From Synechococcus sp. PCC 7336 (GTDB lineage Bacteria > Cyanobacteriota > Cyanobacteriia > Thermostichales > PCC-7336), in contig NZ_CM001776.1 of the NCBI RefSeq assembly GCF_000332275.1, forward strand, positions 620,001 through 684,000: a DNA stretch of 64,000 nucleotides, read 5' to 3'. The notes beneath the pieces are model-generated. The model did not search any database and had not been told where the DNA came from. It worked only from the letters and a program-made list of their open reading frames with translations. Position numbers and translations under genes: made by a program. This document shows, piece by piece, positions 4,114 to 63,453 of this stretch; positions within the stretch are counted from its first letter, which is position 1; each line of letters starts with the position of its first letter.

Positions 4114-4194
4114 ATGGAAGACTATCACTCTATATTTTTAGATAGGCAAGCTGATACTCAAATTTTAAACAAATCTGTTTGAAAAATAGCAGCT
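4114..4194 (+). other. In-frame upstream segment of the HEPN-like gene, ended by TGA
   Basis: ATG at 4114 opens a frame of 22 codons ending at TGA 4180-4182. The same frame then continues KIAA directly into the ATG at 4195 of the downstream gene. The 22 residues (MEDYHSIFLDRQ, then ADTQILNKSV) look like the first helix expected before the MHFGGITIECLLKS helix of a HEPN-like protein. The simplest reading is one original gene, 4114-4545, with a single nonsense codon; reinitiation at 4195 or a sequencing error are alternatives. Confidence 0.6.
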
Positions 4195-4545
4195 ATGCAT
4201 TTCGGAGGAATTACAATTGAGTGCCTTCTTAAGTCTATAGCAATGGCATCTATACCTAAAGGAGCTGCTCCAGAATGGAAAACAAATTCGAATAATCCTG
4301 GCCATACACTCACTAATCCTGGACATAGTTTTGTCGAAGCACTAAAGCGTAATAACCGTCTTTATTCGAGAGTTCAGAAGTATCCAAATGTGATGAAATG
4401 GATTCAAGCTGTTGAAAGGCCAAATCAACACTTTATAGAGATGCGATATTCCTGCCATGCCCCAGATGCGAAGTCTTACAAAGAATGGTGGGAAACATAT
4501 ACACGTCTTTTAGCTTGGCTGAGGTTGCAAGCAACTCAACTTTGA
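4195..4545 (+). CDS. HEPN-like small protein (probably N-terminally truncated)
   Basis: The helix MHFGGITIECLLKSIAMA resembles the helix-2 signature of HEPN proteins (A-x-H-x-G-x-x-x-E-C-x-L-K). A short loop follows, then NPGHSFVEAL, IEMRYS and a C-terminal Trp-rich helix. HEPN proteins are all-helical and many are RNases in toxin-antitoxin or other conflict systems; the H in PGH and R in MRYS could be functional residues, which is inference. As written the protein lacks helix 1, which is encoded just upstream in the same frame behind a TGA. It ends 15 bp before the large NTPase gene, so the two are probably one operon. AT-rich and free of HIP1 sites, unlike the surrounding genes. The fold assignment is by pattern only. 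Confidence 0.6.
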   Translation: MHFGGITIECLLKSIAMASIPKGAAPEWKTNSNNPGHTLTNPGHSFVEALKRNNRLYSRVQKYPNVMKWIQAVERPNQHFIEMRYSCHAPDAKSYKEWWETYTRLLAWLRLQATQL

Positions 4546-4560
4546 GGATACATACAAACA

Positions 4561-7266
4561 ATGCAGAACTGGAAAATTGCTCTTAAAGATAGGCTTGAGG
4601 AGGAGTTTATCAAAACCTCTCAAGAGTGGATTGACATTAATGTTTCTACTGCAGGTTTGCTAAATATCACTCTTATAAGCAATTGTTTTTTGGAGGCTTC
4701 ATTTTCTGAAAGAAAGGATAGAATTATAGAAATAGTCAATGAGATTAAATCTCCAGTATCTCTAGGCTTCCTATCACTATACACCTGCCAAGAAGCTGAT
4801 GAACTTCAAATTCAAGCCCCCATATCTTCGGTTTCTTCTTCAGTAAGGACATGGCAAGATCTTGCCCAGTGGGCTGAAAATCCCCAGAATCAATCACAAA
4901 CTCAATCTCTCAATGGGGTACAGTCACCAAGAACAGTCACTTTTTATTCTTATAAGGGAGGAGTTGGAAGGACAACTGCTCTAACTCATGTTGCGTGGGT
5001 ACTTGCAAGGCGAGGACGTAAAGTTGTTGCAGTTGACTTAGATTTAGAAGCTCCGGGATTAAGCACAGCTTTTAATCTAACTCCGAAGCCTGTCTATGGG
5101 ATCATTGATTACTTTTATGAACGAGCATTCTTACCGGAAGGGATGGCAAATAATATTTCAGTAACTCAAATATTTGGCGAAGTTAGGATTCCAGATGCTA
5201 CAGGTAGATTATTTGTCGTTCCTGCTGGAAATCTGGATTTTGACTACTTATCTAAAGTTGACGATCTCCAAACGACAAGGGTTATTGGCGATGATGGAAA
5301 CCTTTGGTCAGTTTTTAAGGACGAGATTTCTGAGCAGCTTAAACCTGATATTTTGCTGGTTGATTCTCGGACAGGCATTAATCAGTGGGGAGCGCTATCC
5401 TTGTTGCAGGCTGCTGATGAAGTTGTACTGTTTTTATTCCCTAACGAGCAAAATTTACTAGAGATTGACTTGTTGATTGAAGCGTTAAAATCATTAAAAC
5501 GATATTCAATTAACTTTGTTTTTACTCCTGTCCCTGATACAGCCGAGGCAGGAGCAGTTAAAGTCAGAAATATATGGTCTTCTCTGCAAGAAAAAATTGA
5601 TCGAGTAGAAGGTAAATTACAGGACGAGGACTGTGAAGCTACTTCAGAGGATAACGATAATTCTGATGTATTATCAAAAATTGAAGAGTACGAGCCACTT
5701 ATTATACCGTATATCCCCTCGATTGCTCTAGCAGATAGTTATCCGGTGACATCATTATTAGAATACTATGCACGAATTGCTAATCTGATTGACGAGGAGA
5801 CAGATGAACTTCAGCGTAGTAAAATACTATCTGAACCTGAACATCGTTGGGATATTATAGAAAGCTTGAGTTTTCCGGAAGTTAATGCAGCAGATCCAAA
5901 GCAAAACTTAGCTTTATTATTTCAGCGTACTACTGACTTTGAAAGATTTCTTGATAACACCACATGTCTAATAAGAGGACGAAAAGGCACTGGAAAAACT
6001 GCTCTTTATTGGTTATTATTAAAGCACTTTGAGCTGGCAAGAAAGCTTGCTTACGGACGTCTAGATGATGTTATTTGTTTTTCTGGTCATGGTAGATTTC
6101 ACGAGAGTAGACCATCTCGGGATGAATTCAAAGTAGTTCAGAGCGCTTTAGAATCTGAGGAGGCTAGCTGGGAGGCTTTTTGGAGAGCATATTTATTGCT
6201 ACGTGCTTATCAATCTGAACTATTCAAATTCCTACGTGGGAATAGAGGGAAAAAATTCATACGGCTAAAAGAAATTATTAGTGGACTGCCCGTCCATGAC
6301 TGGCGGCTTGAGCATACTAACGCCTTAATTAGATTATCTACAGAACCTGAGTTGATTCTTGTATCAAAGGATGCGCTAAATATTCTTGATGATTGTATTG
6401 CCAAAAAAGATAAGATAGCATGGTTTTTGTATGACGATCTAGATGAAGATTTTGCTTCTCAGTATGATGTTAGGAAACAAGCACTAACCGGACTGTTTCG
6501 TTTCCTTCAGTCATGTGATGCGCGTAGAATAAAATCTATAAGGTTCAAGATCTTCTTGAGGGAAGATATTTGGAGCCGCTTGATATTTGATAATAAAAGC
6601 CACTTTAATGGAAGAGATCTGCTCTTGCAGTGGACAAGAATAGATTTTTTAAGACTAGCTCTAAGACTAGCTCTACACTCTCAGAAGTTTAAAGAATTAG
6701 CTATTCAACTCTCTCCCGTCGAAAGCATCGATCAAGCTACTGAAGAGGCTATTAACCGTGCACTGGAATTACTCTGGGGAAGCCGCCGAAGAAGAGGTAG
6801 CAAAGCTAAGTATGTTTCTAGATGGGTTTATGAGCGGCTTACAGATTCTAGTAATACTACCTTCCCTCGAAGCTTAAGCATACTACTGGCAGGTGCTAAA
6901 GAGCAGGAGCTAAGCTATAAAGATCGGTCTTCAATTAAAGCTCCAATAGATAGATTACTACGGGGTAAGTCTTTAGAATTTGGACTAAGGGAAGCATCTG
7001 AAGAGCGATGCAGTGCGGTCAAAGAAGAGTACCCAGACCTACTTGAATTCTTGGAGACTCTTAAAGGTGTACCTGCCCTCGTTGAAAAACAACAGCTACA
7101 GCATCTTTGGGAAATATCAGTAAGTGAACAGATCCCAGCTTTTGATGATTTTGTTGAATTTATTAGTGAAGTCGGCATCATAGAGTGGCGTGCTAAAGAT
7201 GAGCGCTTTAGATTTGCAGATATTTATGTCCATGGCTTTGAAATGTCTCGTACTGGCGCTATTTAA
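4561..7266 (+). CDS. Conflict-type protein with KGGVGR MinD-like and second P-loop NTPase modules
   Basis: This 901-residue protein has four parts. Residues 1-85 are a small conserved-looking domain of unknown function, then a polar linker. Residues 127-410 form a ParA/MinD-like ATPase with the variant Walker A YKGGVGRTT (131-139), VVAVDLDLEAPGL and ILLVDSRTG. Residues 440-720 form a second P-loop NTPase with GRKGTGKT (473-480), the acidic strand WFLYDDLDED (621-630) and KIFLREDIW (663-671), like the Sll1717-type/STAND-like ATPases of cyanobacteria. The C-terminal ~180 residues are helical and unassigned. KGGVGR-variant ATPases are known from computational surveys of bacterial conflict systems, so a sensor or signalling role beside the HEPN-like gene is inferred. 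AT-rich and HIP1-free, suggesting horizontal transfer. Confidence 0.8.
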   Translation: MQNWKIALKDRLEEEFIKTSQEWIDINVSTAGLLNITLISNCFLEASFSERKDRIIEIVNEIKSPVSLGFLSLYTCQEADELQIQAPISSVSSSVRTWQDLAQWAENPQNQSQTQSLNGVQSPRTVTFYSYKGGVGRTTALTHVAWVLARRGRKVVAVDLDLEAPGLSTAFNLTPKPVYGIIDYFYERAFLPEGMANNISVTQIFGEVRIPDATGRLFVVPAGNLDFDYLSKVDDLQTTRVIGDDGNLWSVFKDEISEQLKPDILLVDSRTGINQWGALSLLQAADEVVLFLFPNEQNLLEIDLLIEALKSLKRYSINFVFTPVPDTAEAGAVKVRNIWSSLQEKIDRVEGKLQDEDCEATSEDNDNSDVLSKIEEYEPLIIPYIPSIALADSYPVTSLLEYYARIANLIDEETDELQRSKILSEPEHRWDIIESLSFPEVNAADPKQNLALLFQRTTDFERFLDNTTCLIRGRKGTGKTALYWLLLKHFELARKLAYGRLDDVICFSGHGRFHESRPSRDEFKVVQSALESEEASWEAFWRAYLLLRAYQSELFKFLRGNRGKKFIRLKEIISGLPVHDWRLEHTNALIRLSTEPELILVSKDALNILDDCIAKKDKIAWFLYDDLDEDFASQYDVRKQALTGLFRFLQSCDARRIKSIRFKIFLREDIWSRLIFDNKSHFNGRDLLLQWTRIDFLRLALRLALHSQKFKELAIQLSPVESIDQATEEAINRALELLWGSRRRRGSKAKYVSRWVYERLTDSSNTTFPRSLSILLAGAKEQELSYKDRSSIKAPIDRLLRGKSLEFGLREASEERCSAVKEEYPDLLEFLETLKGVPALVEKQQLQHLWEISVSEQIPAFDDFVEFISEVGIIEWRAKDERFRFADIYVHGFEMSRTGAI

Positions 7267-7311
7267 CTACTGCAGGCTTTCTGCTGTTATGCTCTCACCA
7301 CTCATGCACTC

Positions 7312-7881
7312 TTAAGGTAAAAGCGATGCAACAGAAAATTTAATCTCGGGAAAAGCCAAAAGCGATATTGACTCCCCAAGCGAATATTCTCGATAGTCGC
7401 CATATCGATCGCCGTTCGGCTGTCGATGCACCAGAATCTTCTCGGCCTTGACATCCAAAATCCAATATTCAGCAATATTAGCCCGGGCGTACAGAGGTAG
7501 TTTGACCATACGATCGTAATCCGAGGTTGAGTCAGAAACTTCAACCAGAGCGTAGATGTCCCGAGGGGTTGGGCGACGATCGCGGTATCTGTCTTCACAA
7601 TATTTGAGAATCGCCAGATCGGGTTCGGGCATTGAACGATCGCTTAAGCGCACTGCTCCTTGCACCCGAACAATGGCTTTCCCTGCTAGAGCTAGCACAA
7701 ACCGTTCGGTGAGTAGATCCGTGCAGGAATTATGAGGAGGACTGATGGGAGCCATCTCGACAATTTCTCCCTCGATGAGCTCGACGCGATCGCTTTGGGT
7801 CAGTACACCCCTTTCGGTCGTCAGTTCGTAGCGGGCTGCAGTGAATTTCAATCGTTCTCGTAGTTCAGTGGCTAACATCAT
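7312..7881 (-). CDS. Uma2 family (DUF820) putative restriction-fold nuclease
   Basis: This 189-residue protein belongs to the Uma2/DUF820 family, which is expanded in cyanobacteria and predicted to have a PD-(D/E)XK nuclease fold; its biological role is unknown. Visible family motifs are RVELIEGEIVEM near residues 32-43, the MPEPDLAIL motif that carries the acidic catalytic-type residues, LVEVSDST and the K in VKLPLYA, then ANIAEYWILD. The two N-terminal Met codons leave the exact start open. It lies convergent to the large NTPase gene, 45 bp away, but its GC and codon use match the host chromosome, so it is probably not part of that cassette. Confidence 0.88.
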   Translation of the reverse strand: MMLATELRERLKFTAARYELTTERGVLTQSDRVELIEGEIVEMAPISPPHNSCTDLLTERFVLALAGKAIVRVQGAVRLSDRSMPEPDLAILKYCEDRYRDRRPTPRDIYALVEVSDSTSDYDRMVKLPLYARANIAEYWILDVKAEKILVHRQPNGDRYGDYREYSLGESISLLAFPEIKFSVASLLP

Positions 7882-7971
7882 TCCATCCCGTTCTCTGACA
7901 GGTCCGAGCTGCTGCAGGTGTGCTTTCCGTTATGTCCCTAGTGTATCTGCAGGGGAGATGAGCCCAGAATT

Positions 7972-7999
7972 AAAGCCCCCGATCGCGATCGGGGGCTTT
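7972..7999 (-). terminator. Hairpin terminator behind hli, built on a HIP1 palindrome
   Basis: The 28 bases form a perfect inverted repeat, AAAGCCCCC plus GATCG and its complement, closing on the HIP1-like centre. It lies about 50 bp after the hli stop, so it probably ends that minus-strand transcript. It could also act on the plus strand because the run of A and T is symmetrical. Confidence 0.7.
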
Positions 8000-8045
8000 G
8001 CTACAGGCATCGGACTTCAAGGTCGTCAGCTTGACTGGATGAGGG

Positions 8046-8198
8046 TTAGACCAAGCCCAGCCAAGCCATGACTCCCTGACCGGTTGCAGCTTCAATCGCA
8101 ATCGCCAGCAGGAAACCGATCATGGCAGCACGACCGTTAATCCGCTCGCAATAGTCATTGAAGCCAAACTTAGGCTGGGTGATATTGGGGTTCGACAT
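8046..8198 (-). CDS. hli: High-light-inducible protein (HLIP, one-helix CAB-like)
   Basis: This 50-residue gene encodes a single-helix chlorophyll/carotenoid-binding thylakoid protein of the HLIP/SCP family, which protects and helps assemble photosystem II under high light. The family motif ERINGRAAMIGF sits at residues 18-29 (Glu, Asn and Arg bind pigment or form the salt bridge), followed by a hydrophobic helix LLAIAIEAATGQG. The short polar N-terminus MSNPNITQPKFGFN is typical. ATG 8198 has GAGG about 8 bases upstream. A strong hairpin follows the stop. psbQ lies just upstream on the same strand, another photosystem II accessory protein. Confidence 0.93.
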   Translation of the reverse strand: MSNPNITQPKFGFNDYCERINGRAAMIGFLLAIAIEAATGQGVMAWLGLV

Positions 8199-8279
8199 GG
8201 GAAACCTCGTTCGATATAGCTGGACGTTACGGGACTGGCAGTTAACTCAATTTTACAAAAATTTGCAAAACTGACGCAG

Positions 8280-8690
8280 CTAAAATGCACTGGCAATATT
8301 ATCAACAGCAGCTTCAAGCTTTTTTTGGGTTTGGCTCAGGCGGTCGCTACTGTAAGTTTCTGCCGCTGCATCCATTGCATCTAGCAGTTCCGGTACGGCT
8401 TTGAAATCGTCCTTCAGTTGAGCTCGCTTGGCTTTGGGCAAGTCTTGCGAGATGGAAAATAGCTGGCGGCGCACCAACCCCATCGGACCGTGAATGTAGG
8501 AGCGCACTTCAAGCCACTCTTGCTTGTTCACATAACCTTGCAGAGTATCGACTTGCTCTTGCAGTTGAGCGATGGGGGGCGGTACTTCGGCTGAGGCAGG
8601 CGGTTGCAGGCTAGGCAAACCCATATAGAGAGCGACGGCAAGCAGAGCGGCGATCGCCAGACGGCGGAGTTGAGTCAACATCGTAGGCAT
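8280..8690 (-). CDS. psbQ: PsbQ/CyanoQ-like photosystem II protein
   Basis: PsbQ is a lumenal extrinsic subunit that stabilises the oxygen-evolving side of photosystem II. The 136 residues comprise an N-terminal signal peptide (LRRLAIAALLAVALYMGL followed by PASA) and a four-helix bundle with EWLEVRSYIHGPMGLVRRQL, typical of CyanoQ, and a tail with LSQTQKKLEAAVDNIAS. Most cyanobacterial PsbQ proteins are lipoproteins with a Cys at the cleavage site; none is visible here, so a signal peptidase I type cut is likely. The open frame runs further upstream to 8909, but ATG 8690 (or 8681) starts the signal peptide. Confidence 0.88.
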   Translation of the reverse strand: MPTMLTQLRRLAIAALLAVALYMGLPSLQPPASAEVPPPIAQLQEQVDTLQGYVNKQEWLEVRSYIHGPMGLVRRQLFSISQDLPKAKRAQLKDDFKAVPELLDAMDAAAETYSSDRLSQTQKKLEAAVDNIASAF

Positions 8691-8794
8691 AATTCCAGAA
8701 TTTAAACGGACTGACAACGCAATATACTTCAACATTATTGCTTGAAGCGTTGCGATTCCAATGCCGCGATGCCTACTTTGGGCAGAGGTTTTCC

Positions 8795-10375
8795 CTAAAG
8801 CCACGCCGCCACGCCGCTGCGACGGCGATCGCCCGACCCCACAAACTGGCCGTTCGCGTCTCTCGCAATCGTGTGAACGCCGCCAAAAAACATATTTTGC
8901 TGCGGCCATTGCACGAGGGTTTCATCAGAGGCGATCGCTAGTTCATTGATATCGAGGGATTGAAACCCCGGCTCGATATTCAACACCCCTTCATTCCAAT
9001 GCAGCCTCGGGGCAGCCACCGCGTCGGTCACCGGCAGGCCGAAATCGAGCAAATTCGACAGCACTTGCACGATCGCCGTGCGAATGCGTTTCGACCCCCC
9101 CGATCCCAGCACAATGCTGGGCTTGCCTCCTTCCAACACCATCGTGGGAGCCATCATGGATGACAGCCGCACGTCGCTCTGCCATTGGTGGAAGCCGTGG
9201 GGGTTGAGATCGTCCTCCCCCAACATGTTATTGAGCATCACCCCCGTACCGGGAATGGCATAGGACGAGCCCTCGCCATTGGAAGCGGTAATGCTAGCTG
9301 CATTTCCGTCGCGATCGATCGCACTAATATGGGTCGTGCTGCCCCACTTACTGCCTCCAGTCCCGAGCGAAGCTGCGTACTGTTCGAGGGATTCGCAGGC
9401 GAGAAACTCGTCGGCGATCGCCTGCCGATAAATCTGGCCGTCCAAACGCTCGTTCCGTGCCAGATTGGTGGCGCGCATGATGTCAGTCAGAATCTTCACA
9501 TGCTGCTGCGACCCCAATTCCACTGCCTGCAAGTCAATCCGCTCTAACAACTTGAGCGAAAAGGCAATCAGCGTGCCCCCAAAACTCGGCGTTGGGTTGG
9601 TGAGTAGCGTGCGCCCGCGATAGCGAACGGATAGAGGTTTGCGCTCGATGGTGCGATAGTGCTGGAGATCGGCCAGTGCGAGATGCCCGCCGCGATCGCG
9701 GCAATCGGCCACTAACTTTTGGGCCATGTCCCCTCGATAAAACACTTGCGGTCCTTCTGCAACCCAATACTCTAATGTCGCGGCAAACTCTTTCATGAAA
9801 AGGCGATCGCCCACTTGCAATAACTCGCCACTGGGTGCATACACCCGACGCATCTCGGGGCAGGCGGTCAGAATGGGCTGGAGAATTGTGAAGACGTACT
9901 GCTGAAATTCATTCACCTCCACCCCCTGTTTGGCATAGCGAATGGCGGGCTCGGCCACCACGCGAAAGGGCAGCGATCCGAACCGCTGGTGAATGCAAAA
10001 CGCCCCATCGAGACTGCCCGGTACTGCCATAGAACCGAGCCCGACGTGGAACTCTTGCTGCACGCCGCCAAAATCCACCAGCACTGGATAAAAATTGCTC
10101 TTGCCCGCAGGCCGCTTCTGGCGCGGCGTTTGGGTGAAGAAGTCAAACAGGACATTGTCGCCTGCCTGAGTGTGGGCCAGACAGAAGCCTCCCCCACCGG
10201 CTGAAGTCAAGGCCGGTTCTGCCACCCAAGAAGCCAGCATGGCCGCGATCGCCGCATCGAAGGCATTCCCCCCCGAGCGAAACATTTCTAGCCCAGCGGC
10301 AACCGTTTTGGGATGCCCGGCAGCAATTGCACCTCGGTGTGGGGATGGCATAGCGACTCGCGCGATCGGGGTCAT
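8795..10375 (-). CDS. ggt: Gamma-glutamyltransferase
   Basis: An Ntn-hydrolase that cleaves and transfers the gamma-glutamyl group of glutathione and related peptides. It is made as a precursor that cuts itself before the catalytic Thr, here Thr347 in the motif STTHISAID. Other family marks are SGGNAFDAAIA and SAGGGGF near the N-terminus, PTPSFGGTL, and the small-subunit ITASNGEGSSYAIPGTGVMLNN and MMAPTMVLEGGKPSIVLGSGG. No clear signal peptide is seen, so it may be cytoplasmic. The 526 residues are close to the normal length. ATG 10375 is used; MPSPHRG, eight codons in, is an alternative start. Confidence 0.95.
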   Translation of the reverse strand: MTPIARVAMPSPHRGAIAAGHPKTVAAGLEMFRSGGNAFDAAIAAMLASWVAEPALTSAGGGGFCLAHTQAGDNVLFDFFTQTPRQKRPAGKSNFYPVLVDFGGVQQEFHVGLGSMAVPGSLDGAFCIHQRFGSLPFRVVAEPAIRYAKQGVEVNEFQQYVFTILQPILTACPEMRRVYAPSGELLQVGDRLFMKEFAATLEYWVAEGPQVFYRGDMAQKLVADCRDRGGHLALADLQHYRTIERKPLSVRYRGRTLLTNPTPSFGGTLIAFSLKLLERIDLQAVELGSQQHVKILTDIMRATNLARNERLDGQIYRQAIADEFLACESLEQYAASLGTGGSKWGSTTHISAIDRDGNAASITASNGEGSSYAIPGTGVMLNNMLGEDDLNPHGFHQWQSDVRLSSMMAPTMVLEGGKPSIVLGSGGSKRIRTAIVQVLSNLLDFGLPVTDAVAAPRLHWNEGVLNIEPGFQSLDINELAIASDETLVQWPQQNMFFGGVHTIARDANGQFVGSGDRRRSGVAAWL

Positions 10376-23644: not shown

Positions 23645-23779
23645 GACTGGCCAGATTGCTTCGATCCACCCCTTCCAGGAATACCTACGGATTTCAATCC
23701 ACAGCAATTAAGGGAGTTCGCGAATCTTTTTTCTGAATGTACAAATGTAGTCCAGTTTTACCTCTCCTCCTTCTTGAAA
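23645..23779 (+). pseudogene. Decayed 3' end and spacer of another pentapeptide-repeat gene copy
   Basis: The stretch aligns with the last ~50 bases plus spacer of the downstream genes: GACTGGCCAGATTGCTTCGATCC, split here as GACTGGCCAG and ATTGCTTCGATCC, matches the coding tail, and the following AATTAAGG, TTTTCTGAATGTA and AATGTAG match the spacer. The copy has substitutions and small indels that shift the frame and remove the stop, so the frame now runs open into the first intact gene. It shows the array once had at least four members. Confidence 0.75.
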
Positions 23780-24475
23780 ATGAAACTACATCTTCCCGTC
23801 GCTCTTGCAGTCCTCGCTATATTTGGGGTGACATTCGCGATCGCACCCATTCATACAACGCTGACTAGATGGCATCTTTTATCGAAGCTTGAGGGTATCG
23901 ACCTTAGCGATCGCTACCTCAGTTATTTAGATCTCAGAGGAGGAGATTTCCGTGGGAATAACTTGCAAGACGCCGATCTATTCGGAGCAAACCTCAAAGG
24001 GGCTAATTTATCTGGCGCTAACCTTACTGGCGCCATGCTTGAATTCGCAGTGCTAAACGAAGCCGATCTCATTGGTGCAGACATACAGTCCGGCCAACTC
24101 GCTTCTGCCATCCTTATCTCGGTCAACCTCAGTGGAGCGAGGCTTAATGGTGCCACTCTCTCCAACGCAAAGCTCAACGCTGCCAATCTTACTGCTGCCG
24201 ATCTCACTGATGCCAATCTCCGAAATGCCAATCTCAGTCATGCCAATCTCAGTCATGCCAATCTCAGCAATGTTGATTTCACCAGTGCTAATTTCACTGA
24301 TGCCGATTTGAGGCTTGCTATACTTTCGAATGCCAATTTGAATGATGTAAACCTTAGTGGAGCCAGACTTGAGGGTGTCAATCTTGAAAATATTCAGTAC
24401 AACGCTAATACGGATTGGCCAGAAGGTTTCGATCCACCTCCTTCCAGAGATAGCTACGACTTCAATCTACAGTAA
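23780..24475 (+). CDS. Pentapeptide-repeat protein, copy 1
   Basis: A 231-residue protein. Residues 1-25 are a hydrophobic signal or anchor (MKLHLPVALAVLAIFGVTFA), followed by a short linker and about 30 pentapeptide repeats of the A(D/N)LXX type from SDRYLSYLDLRGGDF on, ending with GARLEGVNLENIQYN and a tail TDWPEGFDPPPS. The repeats form a right-handed quadrilateral beta-helix. I take ATG 23780 because it aligns with copies 2 and 3; TTG 23774 is two codons earlier. It contains two LSHAN repeats and one LRNAN. The role is unknown; in cyanobacteria such proteins are abundant and mostly exported or membrane-attached. Confidence 0.88.
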   Translation: MKLHLPVALAVLAIFGVTFAIAPIHTTLTRWHLLSKLEGIDLSDRYLSYLDLRGGDFRGNNLQDADLFGANLKGANLSGANLTGAMLEFAVLNEADLIGADIQSGQLASAILISVNLSGARLNGATLSNAKLNAANLTAADLTDANLRNANLSHANLSHANLSNVDFTSANFTDADLRLAILSNANLNDVNLSGARLEGVNLENIQYNANTDWPEGFDPPPSRDSYDFNLQ

Positions 24476-24546
24476 TTAAGGTAGTTTGCAAATAGTTTTC
24501 TGAATGTAAAAATGTAGTTCAAGTTTCCATTTCATCCTTTTCTAAC

Positions 24547-25242
24547 ATGAAACTATATCTTCCCATTACTCTTGCAGTCATCGCTATATTTGGGGTGACA
24601 TTCTCGATCCCACACATTCATACAACGCTGACTAGATGGCATCGTTTATCGAAGCTTGAGGGGACCGACCTTAGCGATCGCTACCTCAGTTATTTAGATC
24701 TCAGAGGAGGAGATTTCCGTGGGAATAACTTGCAAGGCGTCGATCTATTCGGAGCAAACCTCAAAGGGGCTAATTTATCTGGTGCTAACCTTACTGACGC
24801 TCTTCTTCGACATGCAGTGCTAAACGAAGCCGATCTCATTGGTGCAGACATACAGTCCGGCCAACTCGCTTCTGCCATCTTTATCTCAGCTAACCTCAGT
24901 GGAGCGAGGCTTAATGGTGCCACTCTCTCCAACGCAAAGCTCAACGCTGCCAATCTTACTGCTGCCGATCTCACTGATGCCAATCTCAGTCATGCCAATC
25001 TCAGTCATGCCAATCTCAGTCATGCCAATCTCAGCAATGTTGATTTCACCAGTGCTAATTTCACTGATGCCGATTTGAGGCTTGCTATACTTTCGAATGC
25101 CAATTTGAATGATGTAAACCTTAGTGGAGCCAGACTTGAGGGTGTCAATCTTGAAAATATTCAGTACAACGCTAATACGGATTGGCCAGAAGGTTTCGAT
25201 CCACCTCCTTCCAGAGATAGCTACGACTTCAATCTACAGTAA
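24547..25242 (+). CDS. Pentapeptide-repeat protein, copy 2
   Basis: A 231-residue paralogue, almost identical to copy 1 over long stretches; starts are 767 bp apart. The N-terminal hydrophobic segment reads MKLYLPITLAVIAIFGVTFS. It has three consecutive LSHAN repeats encoded by identical 15-bp units. The C-terminal tail is the same as in copy 1. The 71-bp spacer after it is identical to the spacer after copy 1, showing a recent whole-unit duplication. Confidence 0.88.
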   Translation: MKLYLPITLAVIAIFGVTFSIPHIHTTLTRWHRLSKLEGTDLSDRYLSYLDLRGGDFRGNNLQGVDLFGANLKGANLSGANLTDALLRHAVLNEADLIGADIQSGQLASAIFISANLSGARLNGATLSNAKLNAANLTAADLTDANLSHANLSHANLSHANLSNVDFTSANFTDADLRLAILSNANLNDVNLSGARLEGVNLENIQYNANTDWPEGFDPPPSRDSYDFNLQ

Positions 25243-25313
25243 TTAAGGTAGTTTGCAAATAGTTTTCTGAATGTAAAAATGTAGTTCAAGTTTCCATTTC
25301 ATCCTTTTCTAAC

Positions 25314-26036
25314 ATGAAACTATATCTTCCCATTACTCTTGCAGTCATCGCTATATTTGGGGTGACATTCTCGATCCCACACATTCATACAACGCTGACT
25401 AGATGGCATCGTTTATCGAAGCTTGAGGGGACCGACCTTAGCGATCGCTACCTCAGTTATTTAGATCTCAGAGGAGGAGATTTCCGTGGGAATAACTTGC
25501 AAGGCGTCGATCTATTCGGAGCAAACCTCAAAGGGGCTAATTTATCTGGTGCTAACCTCACTGACGCTCTGCTTGGACTTGCAGTACTAAACGAAGCCGA
25601 TCTCAGTGGTGCTGACATAAAGTCTGGCCAGCTTTTTTCTGCAATCTTTATCTCGGCTAACCTCAGTGGAGCTAGGCTAAACGGTGCCACTCTCTCCAAC
25701 GCGAAGCTCAACGCTGCCAATCTTACTGCTGCCAATCTCAGTCATGCCAATCTCAGTCATGCCAATCTCAGTCATGCCAATCTCAGTCATGCCAATCTCA
25801 GTCATGCCAATCTCAGTCATGCCAATCTCAGCAATGTTGATTTCACCAGTGCTAATTTCACTGATGCCGATTTGAGGCTTGCTATACTTTCGAATGCCAA
25901 TTTGAATGATGTAAACCTTAGTGGAGCCAGACTTGAGGGTGTCAATCTTGAAAATATTCAGTACAACGCTAATACGGACTGGCCAGAAGGTTTCGATCCA
26001 CCTCCTTCCAGAGATAGCTACGATCGCGATCCATAA
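25314..26036 (+). CDS. Pentapeptide-repeat protein, copy 3 (expanded repeat tract)
   Basis: A 240-residue paralogue starting 767 bp after copy 2. The N-terminal 80 residues are nearly identical to copy 2. The middle carries six identical LSHAN repeats in place of two or three, and lacks the LTAADLTDAN pair, giving a net gain of nine residues. The C-terminus ends SYDRDP rather than YDFNLQ, because sequence identity with the other copies stops at the array border. The gene is convergent with the RTX gene. Confidence 0.88.
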   Translation: MKLYLPITLAVIAIFGVTFSIPHIHTTLTRWHRLSKLEGTDLSDRYLSYLDLRGGDFRGNNLQGVDLFGANLKGANLSGANLTDALLGLAVLNEADLSGADIKSGQLFSAIFISANLSGARLNGATLSNAKLNAANLTAANLSHANLSHANLSHANLSHANLSHANLSHANLSNVDFTSANFTDADLRLAILSNANLNDVNLSGARLEGVNLENIQYNANTDWPEGFDPPPSRDSYDRDP

Positions 26037-26204: not shown

Positions 26205-29200
26205 TTAATCTCCAAATCTAAACTGATTGCTAGCTAAATCCAAGCCAGATTGTGAATCTAAGCCATCAAAGAATGCAATAACAACTTCTCCCAGATCGAG
26301 TCCTACAGGAAATTCGAAACCCGGAAAGATACCGACTCCTGAAAAGGATCTCTGGTAGGTGAGTGCCAGATAAGGTCTCCCTCCATCAAGAATCGCCTCT
26401 GTCAACCTGAAGTCAGACTGACGACCTTGTGTCAAGACAACAGTATCTTCTCCTATCGTGAAGTCTGTAATCACAGCAACTTCTTGGCCATCGTAGAAAC
26501 TTCCAGAGACTGAAGTCGTTGCACGAAGTATAAATTCATCTCGGTCGGCACCACCTGTAAGGATGTCTCGCCCTTGCCGAGATGATTCTGTAAAGTTAAC
26601 ACCCAAAGCTTCAAGCATGTCATTGCCGGCACCACCGTTGAGAATGTCGTTTCCACCGGGAAACAAAAAGTCATCGACAGTATCTGCCACCAGTCTGTCA
26701 TTACCTCCTCCACCGAATAGCATATCCGAACCAGATCCTCCAAAAAGGTCATCTGTCTGGTCGCCGCCAAATAAGAGATCGTCACCTCTGCCTCCGAATG
26801 CAGTATTTAGACCGTTTCCTGCAAATATAGTGTCATTTCCTTGCTCTCCAAAAATTGAGTCATCGCCCAAACCACCGTATATCGAATCTTTACCATTACC
26901 ACCGAACAAAGTGTCATTACCTATCGTATCTGAGGAAGAATCACTTAAGTCAAAAATTACAAAATCACCAAACAGTACATCGTCACCTCCTCCACCAACA
27001 ACAATATCGTCACCTTCTTCTCCTGCAATTGTATTAATTGCTTGACGATCGCCGCCACCTCCTATATTGAAAAACATTATGGTATCAAGCTGCTCAATCA
27101 ATACTACTCCAGAATTGGCTTCATCAAGAAAATCTGAAACTTGAGTAGTTCGATCGCTGGCACCAAACAAGCGATCGTCACCCATTCCTCCAGTAATATT
27201 ATCGGCTCCTCTACTGCCAATAATTACATCGATGCCATCCCCACCGTCTAATTCATCATCGCCGTCTCTTCCACCCAAAAAATCATCATCATTTCCACCC
27301 TGAATCGTATCCGCTCCTCCATTAGTTCCAACTAGGGTGTCGTTACCACCAAACCCTCTCAAAAACGAAACCCCATCAAAACTTGCGACATTAATTCGAT
27401 TACTACTTGCTCCACCGTTTAGATATAATTCTTCAAGTCCGCTCAGGCTATCTGTACCCAAGCCAAACAATATTGTTTCATTCAATCCTGCAGAGCTTGG
27501 ATCGCTAGTAGCAAAGTTAACGACACTAAGAACTTCGAAGTTTACATCAGCTTTCTCAATTAGGCGATCTGTACCTGCTCCACCAATGAATTCGTCGTTG
27601 AGAGCACCTCCCGAAAGCGTGTCATCGCCACCACCTCCAATGAGGGTGTCTCGCCCTGCGTTCGAGATCAATAGATCTCCACCATTTCCGCCTGTAAGCC
27701 CTGAATTGCCAAGATTAAACTCAGTTACATCGATAATTGCGCCAACACTTCCTTCGACCTGAATATCGAGTCTTTCAATACTGGATAGAGTATCTTTCTC
27801 ATCAATTTCAGTCAGAGCAATATCGCTAGGAATCTCCTGAAGGTCATCAACATCAACATCGGAGACATCACCAACTTGAAAAGTTGTATTGCTAACAACT
27901 ACATCACCAGTGCCTATCCGTTTTACAGTATCGATATTCGAACCACCAATCAGCAAATCATCCTGCGAGCCACCAGAAAGAGTATCTTGTCCGCCTAGAC
28001 CACTCAAAATTACCCCTGTCAGGCTAAAGTCAGATGCATCCAGCACATTTCCATTTCCTCCTCCAATAAGCTCGAAGCGCTCGATGCTATTATGGGTAAT
28101 TAAGTTGTTGTTCCCGACTTGGATTTGAAAATTATCTAGGATTCGATCTTGGTTGATTTCATTCGTAAGTGTATCCTCTCCAGTCAAACCGAAGACTGTA
28201 GTGTTTCCTCTACCAGAAACGATAAAATCATCATCTTCAAGACCTCCAACTAAAGCAAGTTCTCGCGCAAACTCTCGAACATCAAAAGTAATACTATTAT
28301 TATTGTTAAACCCTTGCAGTTCTATATTTTCAATACCAGAGAAACTAGTTGTCAGGACTTCGCCATTTAATGTCCGATCGAGGGTATCTCTGGTCAAAGT
28401 ATAGCTTTCAAAATCTCCAACAATTGAGAGTGTATCTTCCCCTAATCCACCCTCAATACGGTCGGCGGCATCGAAGTCATCAATGATAAAATCATTGCCA
28501 CTTCCAGCACTCAAGATGGCATCGCGATCGAATCCCACCAGAGTATCGTTTCCCGAGCCGCCAAACAGGGAATCTCTTCCGATACCCCCATCAAGCAGAT
28601 CGTTATCACCTTGCCCTCGTATCAGCTCAATACCGTCCCCGCCCAGGATCGTATCGTTTCCTAAGCCCCCAAATCCTTCGGAAAATTCGTCGAGCAAAGC
28701 TACATCAGTAAAGATACTAAGGAGGATTTGGTCGTTACCACCTTCACCAAAGACTCGATCGTTACCCAACCCAGCATTAATGGTGTCGTTCCCTATTCCC
28801 CCAAATACCAAGTCATCACCTGATAAGGCCAATACCTCGTTCCTTTCGGCCTCAGGATCTAGCTCTAGAGATGAGTCGAGTTCTCCAACACGGATGACAT
28901 CATTGCCGATACCCCCTTGTAGAAAGTCAAACCCCAATCCGCCAATAATCGTATTGCTATCACTACCTCCAAGAATGTTGTCATCACCAATACCTCCATT
29001 AAGGAAGTTGAGTCCACTAGGATCGAATATGAGGTCATTTCCGGTCCCGCCATCTATGCGATCGTCGCCAGCACCCCCATCAATAACGTCATTTCCTGCG
29101 GCAGCAAAGACAACGTCATTTCCTGCACCTGCAACAATAAAATCGAAGAGTAGTGTATCATCATCCAGGCCAAAAATAGTTTCACTATTACCCGAAAGAG

Positions 29201-29798
29201 CATCAATCTCTAAGGCTATAGCGAAACCTTCCGGTGAAGCCTCTTCAAAAAGTAGACCACTGGACACAAACCCTCTAACATCAATCAATTCAACTTCAGC
29301 TCCTATCGAAGTAAGTTGAAGAGTTAATATATTTTCGATGGTATTTACAGATTCATTGCCAAATGGATCGATAGCTCGTATCTCATTCTCACTAATGATA
29401 ATGTCACCAACTAATGCCGTAGAAACTATACCGTTAATTAAGGTATTGTTTCCTGTAAAACCACTCAAGAATGTGATGACTGATGTAGAGCCGATTAAGG
29501 TGTCATCGCCGTTTTGGCTTGTGAGGATGATACGGCCCTCACCATCAGAGAAATTAGCTCCTGTGACCCCAGAAGCATCAATAGTATTATTGCTGTTAGC
29601 TGGACCATTAATTTGAAGACTTGTAAAAGGGAAAAAACCACCTACCAACGAGAAAGTCATACTATTAATAGGATCGCCTGAAACCTCATCAAAGATCCCG
29701 ACATCTGTAACTCGTACTACTGTGACATCAAATATGGAACTAAAGTCGTCTTCACCTCTCAGATCTACAGAAAAGGTGTCGTTAGCTAATTGAGGCAT
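26205..29798 (-). CDS. Large RTX calcium-binding (hemolysin-type repeat) protein
   Basis: A 1197-residue secreted-type protein. It lacks an N-terminal signal peptide. From about residue 210 it contains many nonapeptide repeats of the form GGxGxDxLx, for example GGAGDDRIDGGTGND, arranged in blocks separated by beta-rich spacers (for example near residues 470-650). Such repeats fold into calcium-binding beta-rolls after export. The C-terminal ~100 residues (GGADRDEFILR, VITDFTIGEDTVVL) match the usual uncleaved type I secretion signal region of cyanobacterial RTX proteins. No protease or lipase motif is seen, so a surface-layer, adhesin or motility role is possible. ABC exporter genes are not in the window. 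ATG 29798 follows AAAGGAAAAG. Confidence 0.9.
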   Translation of the reverse strand: MPQLANDTFSVDLRGEDDFSSIFDVTVVRVTDVGIFDEVSGDPINSMTFSLVGGFFPFTSLQINGPANSNNTIDASGVTGANFSDGEGRIILTSQNGDDTLIGSTSVITFLSGFTGNNTLINGIVSTALVGDIIISENEIRAIDPFGNESVNTIENILTLQLTSIGAEVELIDVRGFVSSGLLFEEASPEGFAIALEIDALSGNSETIFGLDDDTLLFDFIVAGAGNDVVFAAAGNDVIDGGAGDDRIDGGTGNDLIFDPSGLNFLNGGIGDDNILGGSDSNTIIGGLGFDFLQGGIGNDVIRVGELDSSLELDPEAERNEVLALSGDDLVFGGIGNDTINAGLGNDRVFGEGGNDQILLSIFTDVALLDEFSEGFGGLGNDTILGGDGIELIRGQGDNDLLDGGIGRDSLFGGSGNDTLVGFDRDAILSAGSGNDFIIDDFDAADRIEGGLGEDTLSIVGDFESYTLTRDTLDRTLNGEVLTTSFSGIENIELQGFNNNNSITFDVREFARELALVGGLEDDDFIVSGRGNTTVFGLTGEDTLTNEINQDRILDNFQIQVGNNNLITHNSIERFELIGGGNGNVLDASDFSLTGVILSGLGGQDTLSGGSQDDLLIGGSNIDTVKRIGTGDVVVSNTTFQVGDVSDVDVDDLQEIPSDIALTEIDEKDTLSSIERLDIQVEGSVGAIIDVTEFNLGNSGLTGGNGGDLLISNAGRDTLIGGGGDDTLSGGALNDEFIGGAGTDRLIEKADVNFEVLSVVNFATSDPSSAGLNETILFGLGTDSLSGLEELYLNGGASSNRINVASFDGVSFLRGFGGNDTLVGTNGGADTIQGGNDDDFLGGRDGDDELDGGDGIDVIIGSRGADNITGGMGDDRLFGASDRTTQVSDFLDEANSGVVLIEQLDTIMFFNIGGGGDRQAINTIAGEEGDDIVVGGGGDDVLFGDFVIFDLSDSSSDTIGNDTLFGGNGKDSIYGGLGDDSIFGEQGNDTIFAGNGLNTAFGGRGDDLLFGGDQTDDLFGGSGSDMLFGGGGNDRLVADTVDDFLFPGGNDILNGGAGNDMLEALGVNFTESSRQGRDILTGGADRDEFILRATTSVSGSFYDGQEVAVITDFTIGEDTVVLTQGRQSDFRLTEAILDGGRPYLALTYQRSFSGVGIFPGFEFPVGLDLGEVVIAFFDGLDSQSGLDLASNQFRFGD

Positions 29799-60148: not shown

Positions 60149-61699
60149 ATGACCCTCACCCAAGCAATTCTCTCAACCTTACCGGGAAACACTTATAGCA
60201 ACTTGCAGCGAGCAGATGCCCGCTGGACAGCTCTGCGGCAAGGGGCACTGACCGTGCCCGAGGTTGTGACCAACAGTTCCGCACCACTCGGCGAACCGGA
60301 TTGGGATGTTGTCATTGCTGGCGGTACGCTGGGCATTTCGATCGGGGCTGCCTTGGCTCGGCGGAGCTGGAAGGTTGCGGTTATCGAGCGCGGTCCATTA
60401 AAAGGGCGGGAGCAGGAGTGGAATATCTCGCGGCGCGAGCTGGAGGTATTGGTCGAGCTGGAGCTGTTGACGCCAGCGGAATTGGAACAGGCGATCGCCA
60501 CCGAATTTAATCCCGTGCGCCTCAGCTTTCTAGGGGGAGAAGATATCTGGGTGCGCGACGTGCTCAATCTTGGCGTCGATCCCGTCTTTCTGTTAGAAAC
60601 CCTCAAAACTCGCTTCCTGGCCAGTGGCGGGACGCTCTTGGAACGGACTCCCTTCGACCGTGCCACCATTCACCCCGATGGCGTCTGCGTGCAAGCGGGC
60701 GAAACCCCTCTCAAAACCCGACTCCTGCTCGATGCGATGGGCCACTTTTCCCCGATCGCCCGCCAGGCCCGTTGCGGCCAGACACCAGACGCTGTGTGTG
60801 TTGTTGTCGGCACCTGCGCGCGAGGTTACGCCGCCAACGAAAGCGGCGATCTGCTAGTCTCCTTCACCCCCCTGCAGCGCCAATGTCAGTACTTTTGGGA
60901 AGCATTTCCCGCCCGCGATGGCCGCACGACCTACCTGTTCACCTACCTGGACGCCCACCCAGAGCGCCCCAGTTTGGAAGCATTTTTCGACGAGTATTTG
61001 CGCTTGCTGCCAGACTATCAGGCGATCGAGCTGGCCCAACTCACTTGGAAGCGCGCTCTGTTCGGTTTTTTCCCTTGCTACCGCCAGAGTCCTCTCTCAG
61101 CCCCCAGCGATCGCGTTTTGCCCATCGGCGATAGCAGCGGCAGCCAGTCTCCCCTCAGTTTCGGCGGTTTTGGAGCCATGCTGCGCCACCTCGCGAGGTT
61201 AGATAAGGGGATTGACGAAGCCCTGTCTAGCGACAGCCTCAGTCAGAGCGATCTGGCGCTGCTGCAACCGTATCAGCCCAACTTGTCCGTCACCTGGTTG
61301 TTTCAGCGATCGATGAGCGCCAGAGTGAACCAAAAGCTCCCCCCCGATCGCATCAACACCCTTCTCATCGCTGTCTTCCAAGCCATGCAACAAGCTGGTG
61401 ACGATGTTCTCAAGCCATTCTTACAAGATGTCGTTCAATTCCCCGCCCTCGCCCAAGCCCTGCTGCGCACTTCGGCCATCGACCCGGCGATCGCCCTCAA
61501 AATCCTTCCCCAAGTGGGCCTGCCCGCTTTTCTGGATTGGACCCGCCACTACGCGGCTCTGGGCACCTACAGCCTCCTCAATCCGCTGGGCCAAGCCCTA
61601 CTCCCCCAGATCGACTCGCTCCCGCCTAAATCCCGATATCGCTGGCACCAGCGCCTACAAGCCTGGAAATACGGCTCTGGCGGAGACTTTCATAGTTGA
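60149..61699 (+). CDS. cruP: CruP-type lycopene cyclase paralogue (FAD-dependent)
   Basis: A 516-residue flavoprotein of the CruA/CruP family, involved in carotenoid metabolism. The FAD-binding motif is DVVIAGGTLGISIGAALAR, followed by VAVIERGPLKGREQEWNISRRE, and the second motif is IGDSSGSQSPLSFGGFGAMLRHL. The central FWEAFPARDGRTTYLFTYLD is typical of CruP. CruA homologues cyclise lycopene; the role of CruP is debated and has been linked to limiting carotene epoxides under stress. It ends 53 bp before the DUF262 gene. Confidence 0.88.
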   Translation: MTLTQAILSTLPGNTYSNLQRADARWTALRQGALTVPEVVTNSSAPLGEPDWDVVIAGGTLGISIGAALARRSWKVAVIERGPLKGREQEWNISRRELEVLVELELLTPAELEQAIATEFNPVRLSFLGGEDIWVRDVLNLGVDPVFLLETLKTRFLASGGTLLERTPFDRATIHPDGVCVQAGETPLKTRLLLDAMGHFSPIARQARCGQTPDAVCVVVGTCARGYAANESGDLLVSFTPLQRQCQYFWEAFPARDGRTTYLFTYLDAHPERPSLEAFFDEYLRLLPDYQAIELAQLTWKRALFGFFPCYRQSPLSAPSDRVLPIGDSSGSQSPLSFGGFGAMLRHLARLDKGIDEALSSDSLSQSDLALLQPYQPNLSVTWLFQRSMSARVNQKLPPDRINTLLIAVFQAMQQAGDDVLKPFLQDVVQFPALAQALLRTSAIDPAIALKILPQVGLPAFLDWTRHYAALGTYSLLNPLGQALLPQIDSLPPKSRYRWHQRLQAWKYGSGGDFHS

Positions 61700-61752
61700 A
61701 TAGAAGGTGTTGGACTGTAAACATCTCAACTCAGAATGCATTATCTCAATAT

Positions 61753-63453
61753 ATGGCTCGCGTAAACCTCTTAGACACTCGAACGACCAGCTTTGGCGAT
61801 CTCATTAGCAATGGGAAAATTTATCGAGTGCCGCCTTTTCAAAGAGATTATTCCTGGCAAGAGGAAAACTGGGAAGATCTTTGGCAAGACATTCTCTCAT
61901 TGCATCGCGATCCTAGTATTAGCCACTACATGGGAGCCATCGTTTTACAGAGCTCGGGCACATCTGACAAAGAATTTACCGTCATCGACGGCCAACAGCG
62001 ATTGGCCACCCTCAGCATCATTGCTATTGCTGTCATCGAAAAAATTCGGCTTCTCGTACAACAGGGTATTGAGGAAGATGCCAATCGAGATCGCCAAGAA
62101 ATTCTCAAACGAACTTACTTAGGAGATAAAGACCCTCGCTCTTTACGTTACTCTAGCAAACTACTCTTGAATGAAAACAACAATGATTTTTATCAAAGCA
62201 ACTTAATCAACCTTAGAGAACCATTGAATATTCGCTCTCTTTCAAAATCCAATCAACTACTTTGGAAGACATTTCAATATTCCACTCGTCAACTAGATGA
62301 GCTTACTGAGATCTTAAAAGAAGGAGTTCTATTGGCTGAATTTCTGACAGATACTATCGCACAAAGACTCTTATTTATACAAATCAATGTTGAGGATGAA
62401 CTCAATGCATACACTGTATTTGAGACCTTGAATGCTCGCGGAATCGAGCTCAGTTCTACAGATCTATTAAAAAACTATCTCTTTTCTCTTTTTCGCGGGC
62501 CAGACGATCTACACGAAGCCCAAAGGCAATGGAGACGAATTGCCAATACGGTTCAGATGGAGAAGTTTCCAGAGTTTTTGAGATATTATCTCAGCCTCAA
62601 ACATACCAGGGTAAGGCGAGGGCGTTTGTTTAAGATGGTTCGGCGATCGGTGACAGATGCACGTTCGGCATTTGAATTGCTCGACCAGCTTGAGAACTAC
62701 AGCAGTCTCTTCATCGCTCTGGGGAACCCTAATGATGAATTCTGGATCGATAGGCCAGAAAGCAGGCAATATGTGCGCGAGCTGGCTCTTTTTCGCGTCA
62801 AGCAAGCATATCCAGCTCTATTCGCGGCATATCAAAAATTTTCCGCCGAAGATTACATCCGCCTTCTAAAACTTACTTCTATAATTTCGTTTCGATATAG
62901 TGTTGTCAGTGGATTAAATCCCAACGAATTAGAGTCTTTATATAATAGCGTCGCCATTAAGATCGCGTCTGAAGAAATTACTCGTCCCAGACAGGTTTTT
63001 GAGATTTTACGCCCAGCTTATGTAGCCGACGAGAAGTTCCAGCAAGACTTCAGCTTTCTTGCCATCTCTACAAAAGGCAAAAAGAAAAAACTGGTTAGAT
63101 ATATTCTCACCAAGCTGGAGGCAGATCGATCGAGCAGAGTTGATAATGAAGACAGCTTTTCAATTGAGCATATTCTACCCGAATCTCCTTCCAACGAATG
63201 GAGACTCAATTTTACCGATGATGAAATCGAGGATATGGTATATCGACTTGGCAATCTCACCCCCTTAGAGCCAAACTTTAATCGTAGAGTCGGGAATGAC
63301 GCATATCAAGCCAAACAGGATGTATACGCCAAAAGTGCATATAACTTGACTCAAGAGATTGCGGCTGAAGAGTGGACGCCAGACAGTATTCTCAATCGTC
63401 AGCAAGATATGGCCAAAAGAGCGATCGAGATCTGGAGATCTGATTTTTTGTAG
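61753..63453 (+). CDS. DUF262/DUF1524 protein (GmrSD-like restriction endonuclease family)
   Basis: A 566-residue protein. The N-terminal DUF262 domain has YRVPPFQRDYSWQEENWEDL and the nucleotide-handling motif VIDGQQRLATLSII, as in GmrS and DndB/ParB-like NTPases. The C-terminal DUF1524 domain has EHILPESPSNEW near residue 472 and the later LGNLTPLEPNFNRRVGN, the His-Asn layout of an HNH nuclease. GmrSD enzymes cut DNA with modified cytosines, so a defence role is likely. It is AT-rich and without the HIP1 palindrome. ATG 61753 begins the homologous region; the frame reaches back to 61696, overlapping the cruP stop. Confidence 0.88.
   Translation: MARVNLLDTRTTSFGDLISNGKIYRVPPFQRDYSWQEENWEDLWQDILSLHRDPSISHYMGAIVLQSSGTSDKEFTVIDGQQRLATLSIIAIAVIEKIRLLVQQGIEEDANRDRQEILKRTYLGDKDPRSLRYSSKLLLNENNNDFYQSNLINLREPLNIRSLSKSNQLLWKTFQYSTRQLDELTEILKEGVLLAEFLTDTIAQRLLFIQINVEDELNAYTVFETLNARGIELSSTDLLKNYLFSLFRGPDDLHEAQRQWRRIANTVQMEKFPEFLRYYLSLKHTRVRRGRLFKMVRRSVTDARSAFELLDQLENYSSLFIALGNPNDEFWIDRPESRQYVRELALFRVKQAYPALFAAYQKFSAEDYIRLLKLTSIISFRYSVVSGLNPNELESLYNSVAIKIASEEITRPRQVFEILRPAYVADEKFQQDFSFLAISTKGKKKKLVRYILTKLEADRSSRVDNEDSFSIEHILPESPSNEWRLNFTDDEIEDMVYRLGNLTPLEPNFNRRVGNDAYQAKQDVYAKSAYNLTQEIAAEEWTPDSILNRQQDMAKRAIEIWRSDFL

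What the first reader, a model, noticed from the sequence alone, without database searches (positions are those of the whole stretch)
4114..7266. Candidate conflict system: HEPN-like protein paired with a dual P-loop NTPase
Seen: two closely spaced genes (15 bp apart) in an AT-rich island. The first resembles a HEPN protein; the second joins a KGGVGR-variant MinD-like ATPase to a second P-loop NTPase of the Sll1717/STAND-like type, with an N-terminal unassigned domain. Known: KGGVGR ATPases and HEPN RNases both recur in bacterial conflict systems. Inference: the NTPase is sensor/regulator and the HEPN-like protein the effector or its partner. I do not know this exact pair as a described system.
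Basis: partly seen in the sequence, partly recalled or inferred. Interest (0 to 1): 0.75.

Follow-up and report, generated by a model that had tools for sequence, protein, structure and literature searches.

The report
Broken HEPN beside dual-NTPase defence gene
This is a horizontally acquired bacterial gene pair, a small HEPN-fold protein and a large double ATPase, that recurs together in cyanobacteria, on plasmids and on proviral contigs; it belongs to a database-listed but untested phage-defence candidate, and in this genome the small gene is interrupted by a stop codon.

Summary
The large gene (4561-7266, 901 aa) is real. It has an N-terminal BolA-like domain, a KGGVGR MinD/ParA-type ATPase and an Sll1717-type ORC/STAND P-loop ATPase. 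The small gene is real as a reading frame (4114-4545) but broken: an in-frame TGA at 4180-4182 leaves at most a 116-aa ORF. All 36 other inspected cyanobacterial loci with a close NTPase carry the small gene directly upstream (two copies damaged). A predicted structure and PDB comparison show a HEPN fold. It lacks the classical Rx4-6H motif but keeps Ex3K, a separate His and Arg-Tyr in 61-62 of 62 relatives, like the non-canonical site described for AF0298/AbiV-type HEPN proteins. The pair is the fused form of PADLOC's candidate PDC-M28 (A = HEPN, B = KGGVGR, C = Sll1717), which I found in no paper text. The unfused three-gene form sits on IMG/VR contigs, some with portal, terminase or integrase genes, and on plasmids. 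The N-terminal domain differs between groups; the rest stays constant. Best reading: NTP-gated, HEPN-effector abortive defence, inferred and not shown, probably disabled at this locus. The same genome has a second, open paralogous pair.

The parts
4114..4545 (+). HEPN-family small gene (PDC-M28A type), full-length frame, interrupted by an in-frame stop
   Evidence: frame with TGA read through; alignment to 36 relatives; HEPN fold
4180..4182 (+). in-frame TGA that breaks the small gene; intact copies exist in relatives
   Evidence: the genome search also reports 1 TGA inside this match
4195..4545 (+). remaining open frame, 116 aa, lacking the first helix of the HEPN fold; no Pfam, PADLOC or NCBIfam match above threshold on its own
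4219..4233 (+). Ex3K motif of the small protein (E36, K40), invariant in 62 of 62 partners
4324..4326 (+). invariant histidine H71 of the small protein (62 of 62)
4444..4449 (+). Arg-Tyr pair R111-Y112 of the small protein (R in 61 of 62, Y in 62 of 62)
4561..7266 (+). fused NTPase, 901 aa: BolA-like + KGGVGR ATPase + Sll1717 ATPase (PDC-M28B and PDC-M28C in one chain)
4561..4845 (+). N-terminal BolA-like domain, residues 1-95
   Evidence: hhalign 95%, P 3.5e-8; controls at most 1.2%; Pfam BolA in 15 of 33 family members, best E 0.01
4927..5487 (+). KGGVGR MinD/ParA-like ATPase domain, residues 123-309; Walker A KGGVGRTT at residues 132-139
   Evidence: NF047398; MinD/ParA structures, Foldseek probability 1.00; Arg in place of the Walker Lys in all proteins checked
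5881..7215 (+). Sll1717-type P-loop ATPase domain, residues 441-885; intact Walker A GRKGTGKT at 5977-6000

Best explanation
The locus is a horizontally acquired copy of the fused form of the candidate anti-phage system PDC-M28. Shown by sequence and fold comparison: a HEPN-fold protein is encoded directly upstream of, and has diverged together with, a chain made of a BolA-like domain, a KGGVGR MinD-type ATPase and an ORC/STAND-type Sll1717 ATPase; the unfused three-gene form also sits on proviral contigs and plasmids. Inferred: the two ATPases form an NTP-dependent switch. The group-specific N-terminal domain, and possibly the C-terminal part, senses an infection cue. The active switch then licenses the HEPN protein, which uses the non-canonical Ex3K / His / Arg-Tyr site to cut or bind RNA, so that translation stops and the infected cell does not produce phage. 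In this genome the HEPN gene carries a nonsense codon, so this copy is most likely inactive. A second, open paralogous pair lies at genome position about 1.77 Mb.
For: PADLOC: window NTPase matches PDC-M28B (4.3e-37) and PDC-M28C (8.5e-26); relatives of the small gene match PDC-M28A (best 1.6e-13) and Pfam HEPN PF05168 (best 1.4e-6). Small gene directly upstream in all inspected close loci, in 11 of 12 divergent fused loci and in 12 of 12 IMG/VR loci with adjacent full-length B and C genes or the fused form. Distances of the two proteins correlate (r 0.96 over all, 0.53 within group A, 0.82 within group B, p 0.0001). HEPN fold: pLDDT 89.8; 1ufb Z 11.2, sacsin 10.9, 1o3u 10.0, AF0298 2hsb 9.8. 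Invariant E36, K40, H71, Y112, and R111 in 61 of 62, matching the alternative active site proposed for AF0298/AbiV-type HEPN proteins (PMC3710099); three members match the NCBIfam AbiV model (best 5e-4). Portal, terminase or integrase genes on the IMG/VR contigs. Cyanobacterial plasmid copies near hsdR and type III restriction genes. The N-terminal domain differs between groups while the rest is constant.
Against: No activity has been measured. The classical Rx4-6H motif is missing, so RNase activity is uncertain. The window's own small gene is broken. A comparison of defence genes in flanks and control regions was only weakly suggestive.
Confidence: 0.5

Rival explanations
1. The HEPN protein is a non-catalytic adaptor or RNA-binding subunit, and the NTPase chain or an unlinked protein is the effector.
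For: No Rx4-6H motif. The HEPN survey describes motif-less HEPN domains as likely RNA-binding or regulatory parts (PMC3710099). No nuclease domain was found in the NTPase chain.
Against: Charged residues typical of an active site are invariant over very distant partners, which fits a site under strong selection better than a mere scaffold; a ligand-binding site could also explain this.
Confidence: 0.25
2. Toxin-antitoxin-like pair: the HEPN protein is a toxin kept silent by the NTPase.
For: HEPN proteins are common toxins (PMC3710099). HEPN genes are disrupted in three group A loci whose NTPase is intact (window, L047, L036).
Against: Locus L048 has an intact HEPN gene next to an NTPase broken by a stop and an insertion, and L051-L053 have an intact HEPN gene with the Sll1717 half gone and PD-T4-2 genes following. 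A free toxin should not be tolerated there unless the remaining part suffices to hold it.
Confidence: 0.1
3. The window copy is only a decaying remnant with no present function.
For: In-frame TGA that removes the first helix with the well-conserved D14; similar damage in two other genomes.
Against: The NTPase frame is fully open over 901 codons with intact motifs; restart at 4195 or a partner acting in trans cannot be excluded. This reading is compatible with the best explanation of what the system does when intact.
Confidence: 0.6
4. A housekeeping or partition role unrelated to phage defence, given the MinD/ParA-type domain.
For: MinD/ParA fold; some copies are annotated as ParA family proteins.
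Against: Patchy distribution (44 of 390 genomes of the class have a match to the small-gene profile), foreign composition, carriage on proviral contigs next to portal or integrase genes, and fusion to a STAND/ORC-type ATPase.
Confidence: 0.08

Closest known systems
PADLOC candidate PDC-M28 (PDCs come from the Payne et al. 2024 preprint, doi 10.1101/2024.01.29.577857, as cited in PMC12988326)
   Same: same three components in the same order: A (HEPN), B (KGGVGR ATPase), C (Sll1717 ATPase)
   Different: B and C are fused here, a BolA-like N-terminal domain is present, and A is interrupted by a stop codon; no mechanism or test of PDC-M28 was found in the paper library
HEPN-T AF0298 / AbiV-type HEPN proteins
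   Same: HEPN fold, Arg kept, second conserved His outside the classical motif, Ex3K; weak AbiV model match in three relatives
   Different: partner is a dual ATPase, not an MNT nucleotidyltransferase or the AbiV partner; very low sequence identity
STAND (AP-ATPase) proteins with a MinD/ParA-like domain in NTP-dependent conflict systems (Kaur et al. 2020, PMC7159879)
   Same: coupling of a STAND-class ATPase with a MinD/ParA-like domain
   Different: there the MinD/ParA domain is predicted inactive and is coupled to peptide-processing or MoxR-vWA parts; here the partner is HEPN
HEPN-MNT toxin-antitoxin systems
   Same: PF05168-type HEPN protein in a two-gene operon
   Different: no MNT gene; an NTPase takes the partner's place
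PD-T4-2
   Same: its genes stand in the place of the Sll1717 half next to the HEPN-KGGVGR genes in L051-L053
   Different: unrelated GmrSD-type and HEPN_RiboL-PSP-type proteins; not present in the window pair

Membership tests
PDC-M28 (PADLOC) | B component: KGGVGR ATPase profile match | tested here: met
   4.3e-37 to PDLC04559
PDC-M28 (PADLOC) | C component: Sll1717-type ATPase profile match | tested here: met
   8.5e-26 to PDLC04561, fused to B
PDC-M28 (PADLOC) | A component: HEPN gene next to B, matching the A profile | tested here: inconclusive
   the window's 116-aa ORF has no match; its intact relatives match PDC-M28A, e.g. 2.3e-7 for L037
PDC-M28 (PADLOC) | protects against phage | not testable with these tools
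   no experiment; no paper in the library names PDC-M28
HEPN superfamily | four-helix HEPN fold | tested here: met
   model pLDDT 89.8, top PDB matches are HEPN domains, best Z 11.2
HEPN superfamily | classical Rx4-6H RNase motif | tested here: not met
   no His 4-6 residues after R111 is conserved in the alignment
HEPN superfamily, AF0298/AbiV-type site | Arg kept, alternative conserved His upstream, Ex3K | tested here: met
   R111 61/62, H71 62/62, E36 and K40 62/62; definition from PMC3710099
KGGVGR ATPase (NF047398) | score above curated cut-off | tested here: met
   163.1 bits, cut-off 90
Sll1717 ATPase (NF047389) | score above curated cut-off | tested here: met
   130.4 bits, cut-off 75
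BolA (PF01722) | match to the Pfam model at its cut-off | tested here: not met
   no match of the window protein up to E 5; only weak matches in 15 of 33 relatives, best E 0.01
BolA (PF01722) | profile similarity over the domain | tested here: met
   hhalign 95%, P 3.5e-8, shuffled controls at most 0.8%; predicted element order H-E-E-H-E-H
BolA (PF01722) | conserved His of the (R/Q)H signature | tested here: not met
   no His at the aligned position in the window protein or in alignment A2
HEPN-MNT toxin-antitoxin | adjacent MNT nucleotidyltransferase gene | tested here: not met
   the genes on either side are the NTPase, purH and Uma2

The most novel reading that the evidence does not exclude
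An undescribed immune mechanism in which a MinD-type ATPase with an Arg-substituted P-loop and an ORC/STAND-type ATPase together gate a HEPN RNase that uses a non-canonical Ex3K/His/Arg-Tyr site, with exchangeable N-terminal sensor domains, one of them a BolA-like domain recruited as sensor of infection.
Probability: 0.3. Interest if true: 0.7.

Novelty: new variant of a known kind. Interest (0 to 1): 0.45.

Why it matters
It gives a catalogued but unexplained defence candidate an anatomy that can be tested: which HEPN residues matter, which part is constant, and which part varies like a sensor. It also assigns the N-terminal domain of the fused form as BolA-like, a link I found in none of the defence papers searched. 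Carriage on proviral contigs suggests that proviruses may use it against other phages.

Tried and rejected
Rejected: that the small protein is a classical Rx4-6H HEPN RNase (motif absent). Rejected: that the pair is unknown to all databases (PADLOC has it). Rejected: that the BolA-like domain defines the whole system; groups C, E and the viral and plasmid group show no such similarity. Inconclusive: defence-gene content of flanks against control regions of the same genomes; flanks held restriction, PD-T4-2, PD-T4-6 and PDC-S03 matches, while control matches were mostly generic-looking (cysteine desulfurase, helicases), but numbers are small. No help: papers for PDC-M28, KGGVGR and Sll1717 (no hits); sequence search of the HEPN profile against PDB; deposited phage genomes (only weak MinD-like hits); flanking repeats that would mark an insertion (nothing convincing). 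The Foldseek rows shown for the NTPase are filled by the MinD domain, so the folds of the Sll1717 part and of the BolA-like part were not tested separately by structure search. My first ORF listing missed the HEPN gene in L141, L144 and L146 because of overlapping false starts; a stop-to-stop search recovered it.

Full report
Observation. The window lies in a 5.07 Mb single-contig genome; its gene content and nearest relatives point to a cyanobacterium. The NTPase gene at 4561-7266 is an open frame of 901 codons in an island of 39% GC, with 28-29% GC at third codon positions against 63-70% in purH, ggt and ileS nearby. It is therefore foreign in composition. Only 4195-4545 (116 aa) is open, and it lacks the first helix of the fold.

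Homologues. A search of 386 genomes of the phylum found some 37 close or moderately close NTPases. Inspection of 37 such loci (the window, L001 and L032-L066) showed a 130-160 aa gene directly upstream in the same direction in every one. The spacing is a few to about 80 nt, or a short overlap. In three of them that gene is damaged: the window (TGA), L047 (TAG) and L036 (5' part missing). In L048 the small gene is intact but the NTPase is broken by a stop and an insertion. In L051-L053 the second half of the NTPase is gone and genes of PD-T4-2, a known defence system in PADLOC, follow. A more divergent fused group (912-938 aa) has a similar small gene in 11 of 12 loci; in the twelfth the NTPase begins at the contig end. 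A split form with separate B and C genes is present in L068-L070 and in a Calothrix plasmid where the small gene is annotated 'HEPN domain protein'.

Mobile elements. Eighteen loci in IMG/VR contigs encode NTPase relatives. All 12 that hold adjacent full-length B and C genes, or the fused form, have the HEPN-like gene directly upstream. Of nine contigs checked, seven have an integrase, four match the terminase profile (one of them marginally, one with many stops) and three match the portal profile; in G640 the portal gene follows the cassette directly. Plasmids of Paraburkholderia and Burkholderia carry the same gene order. A Nostoc plasmid has the fused pair near hsdR.

What the proteins are. 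Intact relatives of the small protein match Pfam HEPN PF05168 (L069 1.4e-6, L064 1.9e-4) and PADLOC PDC-M28A. The AlphaFold2 model (pLDDT 89.8) matches HEPN structures first: 1ufb Z 11.2, sacsin 3o10 10.9, 1o3u 10.0, 1wol 9.9, AF0298 2hsb 9.8; Foldseek's list is led by the same kinds, though at weak E-values. Over 62 partners from all groups E36, K40, H71 and Y112 are invariant and R111 is kept in 61. The classical Rx4-6H motif is absent. The HEPN survey describes such proteins (AF0298, AbiV): the basic residue is kept, the His of the motif is lost, a second conserved His lies upstream and could form an alternative active site, and many families have Ex3[KR] (PMC3710099). Three members match the NCBIfam AbiV model weakly.

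The NTPase carries the KGGVGR domain (163 bits, cut-off 90) and the Sll1717 domain (130 bits, cut-off 75), and MinD/ParA structures match the first. In every group checked the Walker A lysine of the first domain is arginine, while the second domain keeps a canonical Walker A. The N-terminal 95 residues are BolA-like: hhalign probability 95%, P 3.5e-8, against at most 1.2% for shuffled or unrelated profiles, with weak Pfam BolA matches in 15 of 33 members. The BolA signature His is not kept. The N-terminal domains of groups C, E and the viral and plasmid group do not detectably resemble it, so this part is the variable one.

Link between the two genes. Pairwise distances of small protein and NTPase correlate (r 0.96 over all 31 pairs, 0.53 within group A, 0.82 within group B; Mantel p 0.0001). 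The two have diverged as a unit.

Filing. PADLOC's PDC-M28 consists of these parts; the window NTPase matches B and C in one chain and intact relatives of the small gene match A. PDCs are candidates from the 'guilt-by-embedding' preprint of Payne et al. [quoted passage not shown] No paper in the library names PDC-M28. The window pair is therefore a fused, BolA-bearing variant of a known candidate, with an interrupted A gene.

Mechanism. Shown: fold, motifs, linkage, and carriage on proviral contigs and plasmids. Inferred: the double ATPase senses infection and licenses the HEPN protein to attack or bind RNA, stopping phage production. The main rival is a non-catalytic HEPN adaptor. A toxin-antitoxin reading is less likely because intact HEPN genes persist beside broken or rebuilt NTPases (L048, L051-L053). 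At this locus the system is probably disabled, but the same genome has a second, paralogous pair with an open small gene and NTPase (L061, 888 aa).

Limits. No interaction model, no experiment, no close relative for an empty-site comparison. The defence-island comparison used a mixed set of neighbours and is only suggestive. The stop codon rests on one assembly; it was not checked against reads.

Noticed in passing
window 61696-63453 +: A 585-aa protein with the sequence look of a GmrSD-type (DUF262/DUF1524) restriction protein, in a second AT-rich island (39-41% GC); seen from the sequence, not searched.
   Followed up: no
L061 (G000:C1:1766000-1780000): A second, paralogous HEPN-NTPase pair in the same genome, with open small gene (8470-8910) and NTPase (5799-8465), 32% identical to the window NTPase.
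   Followed up: partly
L051, L052, L053: In three related genomes the Sll1717 half of the NTPase is missing and two genes follow the HEPN-KGGVGR genes in its place; in L051 they match PD-T4-2 A and B.
   Followed up: partly
window 8052-8205 -: A 50-aa ORF that reads like a high-light-inducible protein, below the ORF listing cut-off; a perfect 14+14 nt inverted repeat lies at 7972-7999.
   Followed up: no
window 23774-26036 +: Three tandem, nearly identical pentapeptide-repeat protein genes, followed on the other strand by a 1197-aa glycine/aspartate-repeat (RTX-like) protein at 26205-29798.
   Followed up: no
L136 and L137: Two IMG/VR contigs hold an ORF of 245 aa that is 54% identical to the window NTPase from residue 449 on, without the other parts of the system.
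   Followed up: no
L071 and L109: KGGVGR-domain genes preceded by a HTH-like protein instead of HEPN: a different context of the same ATPase domain.
   Followed up: no
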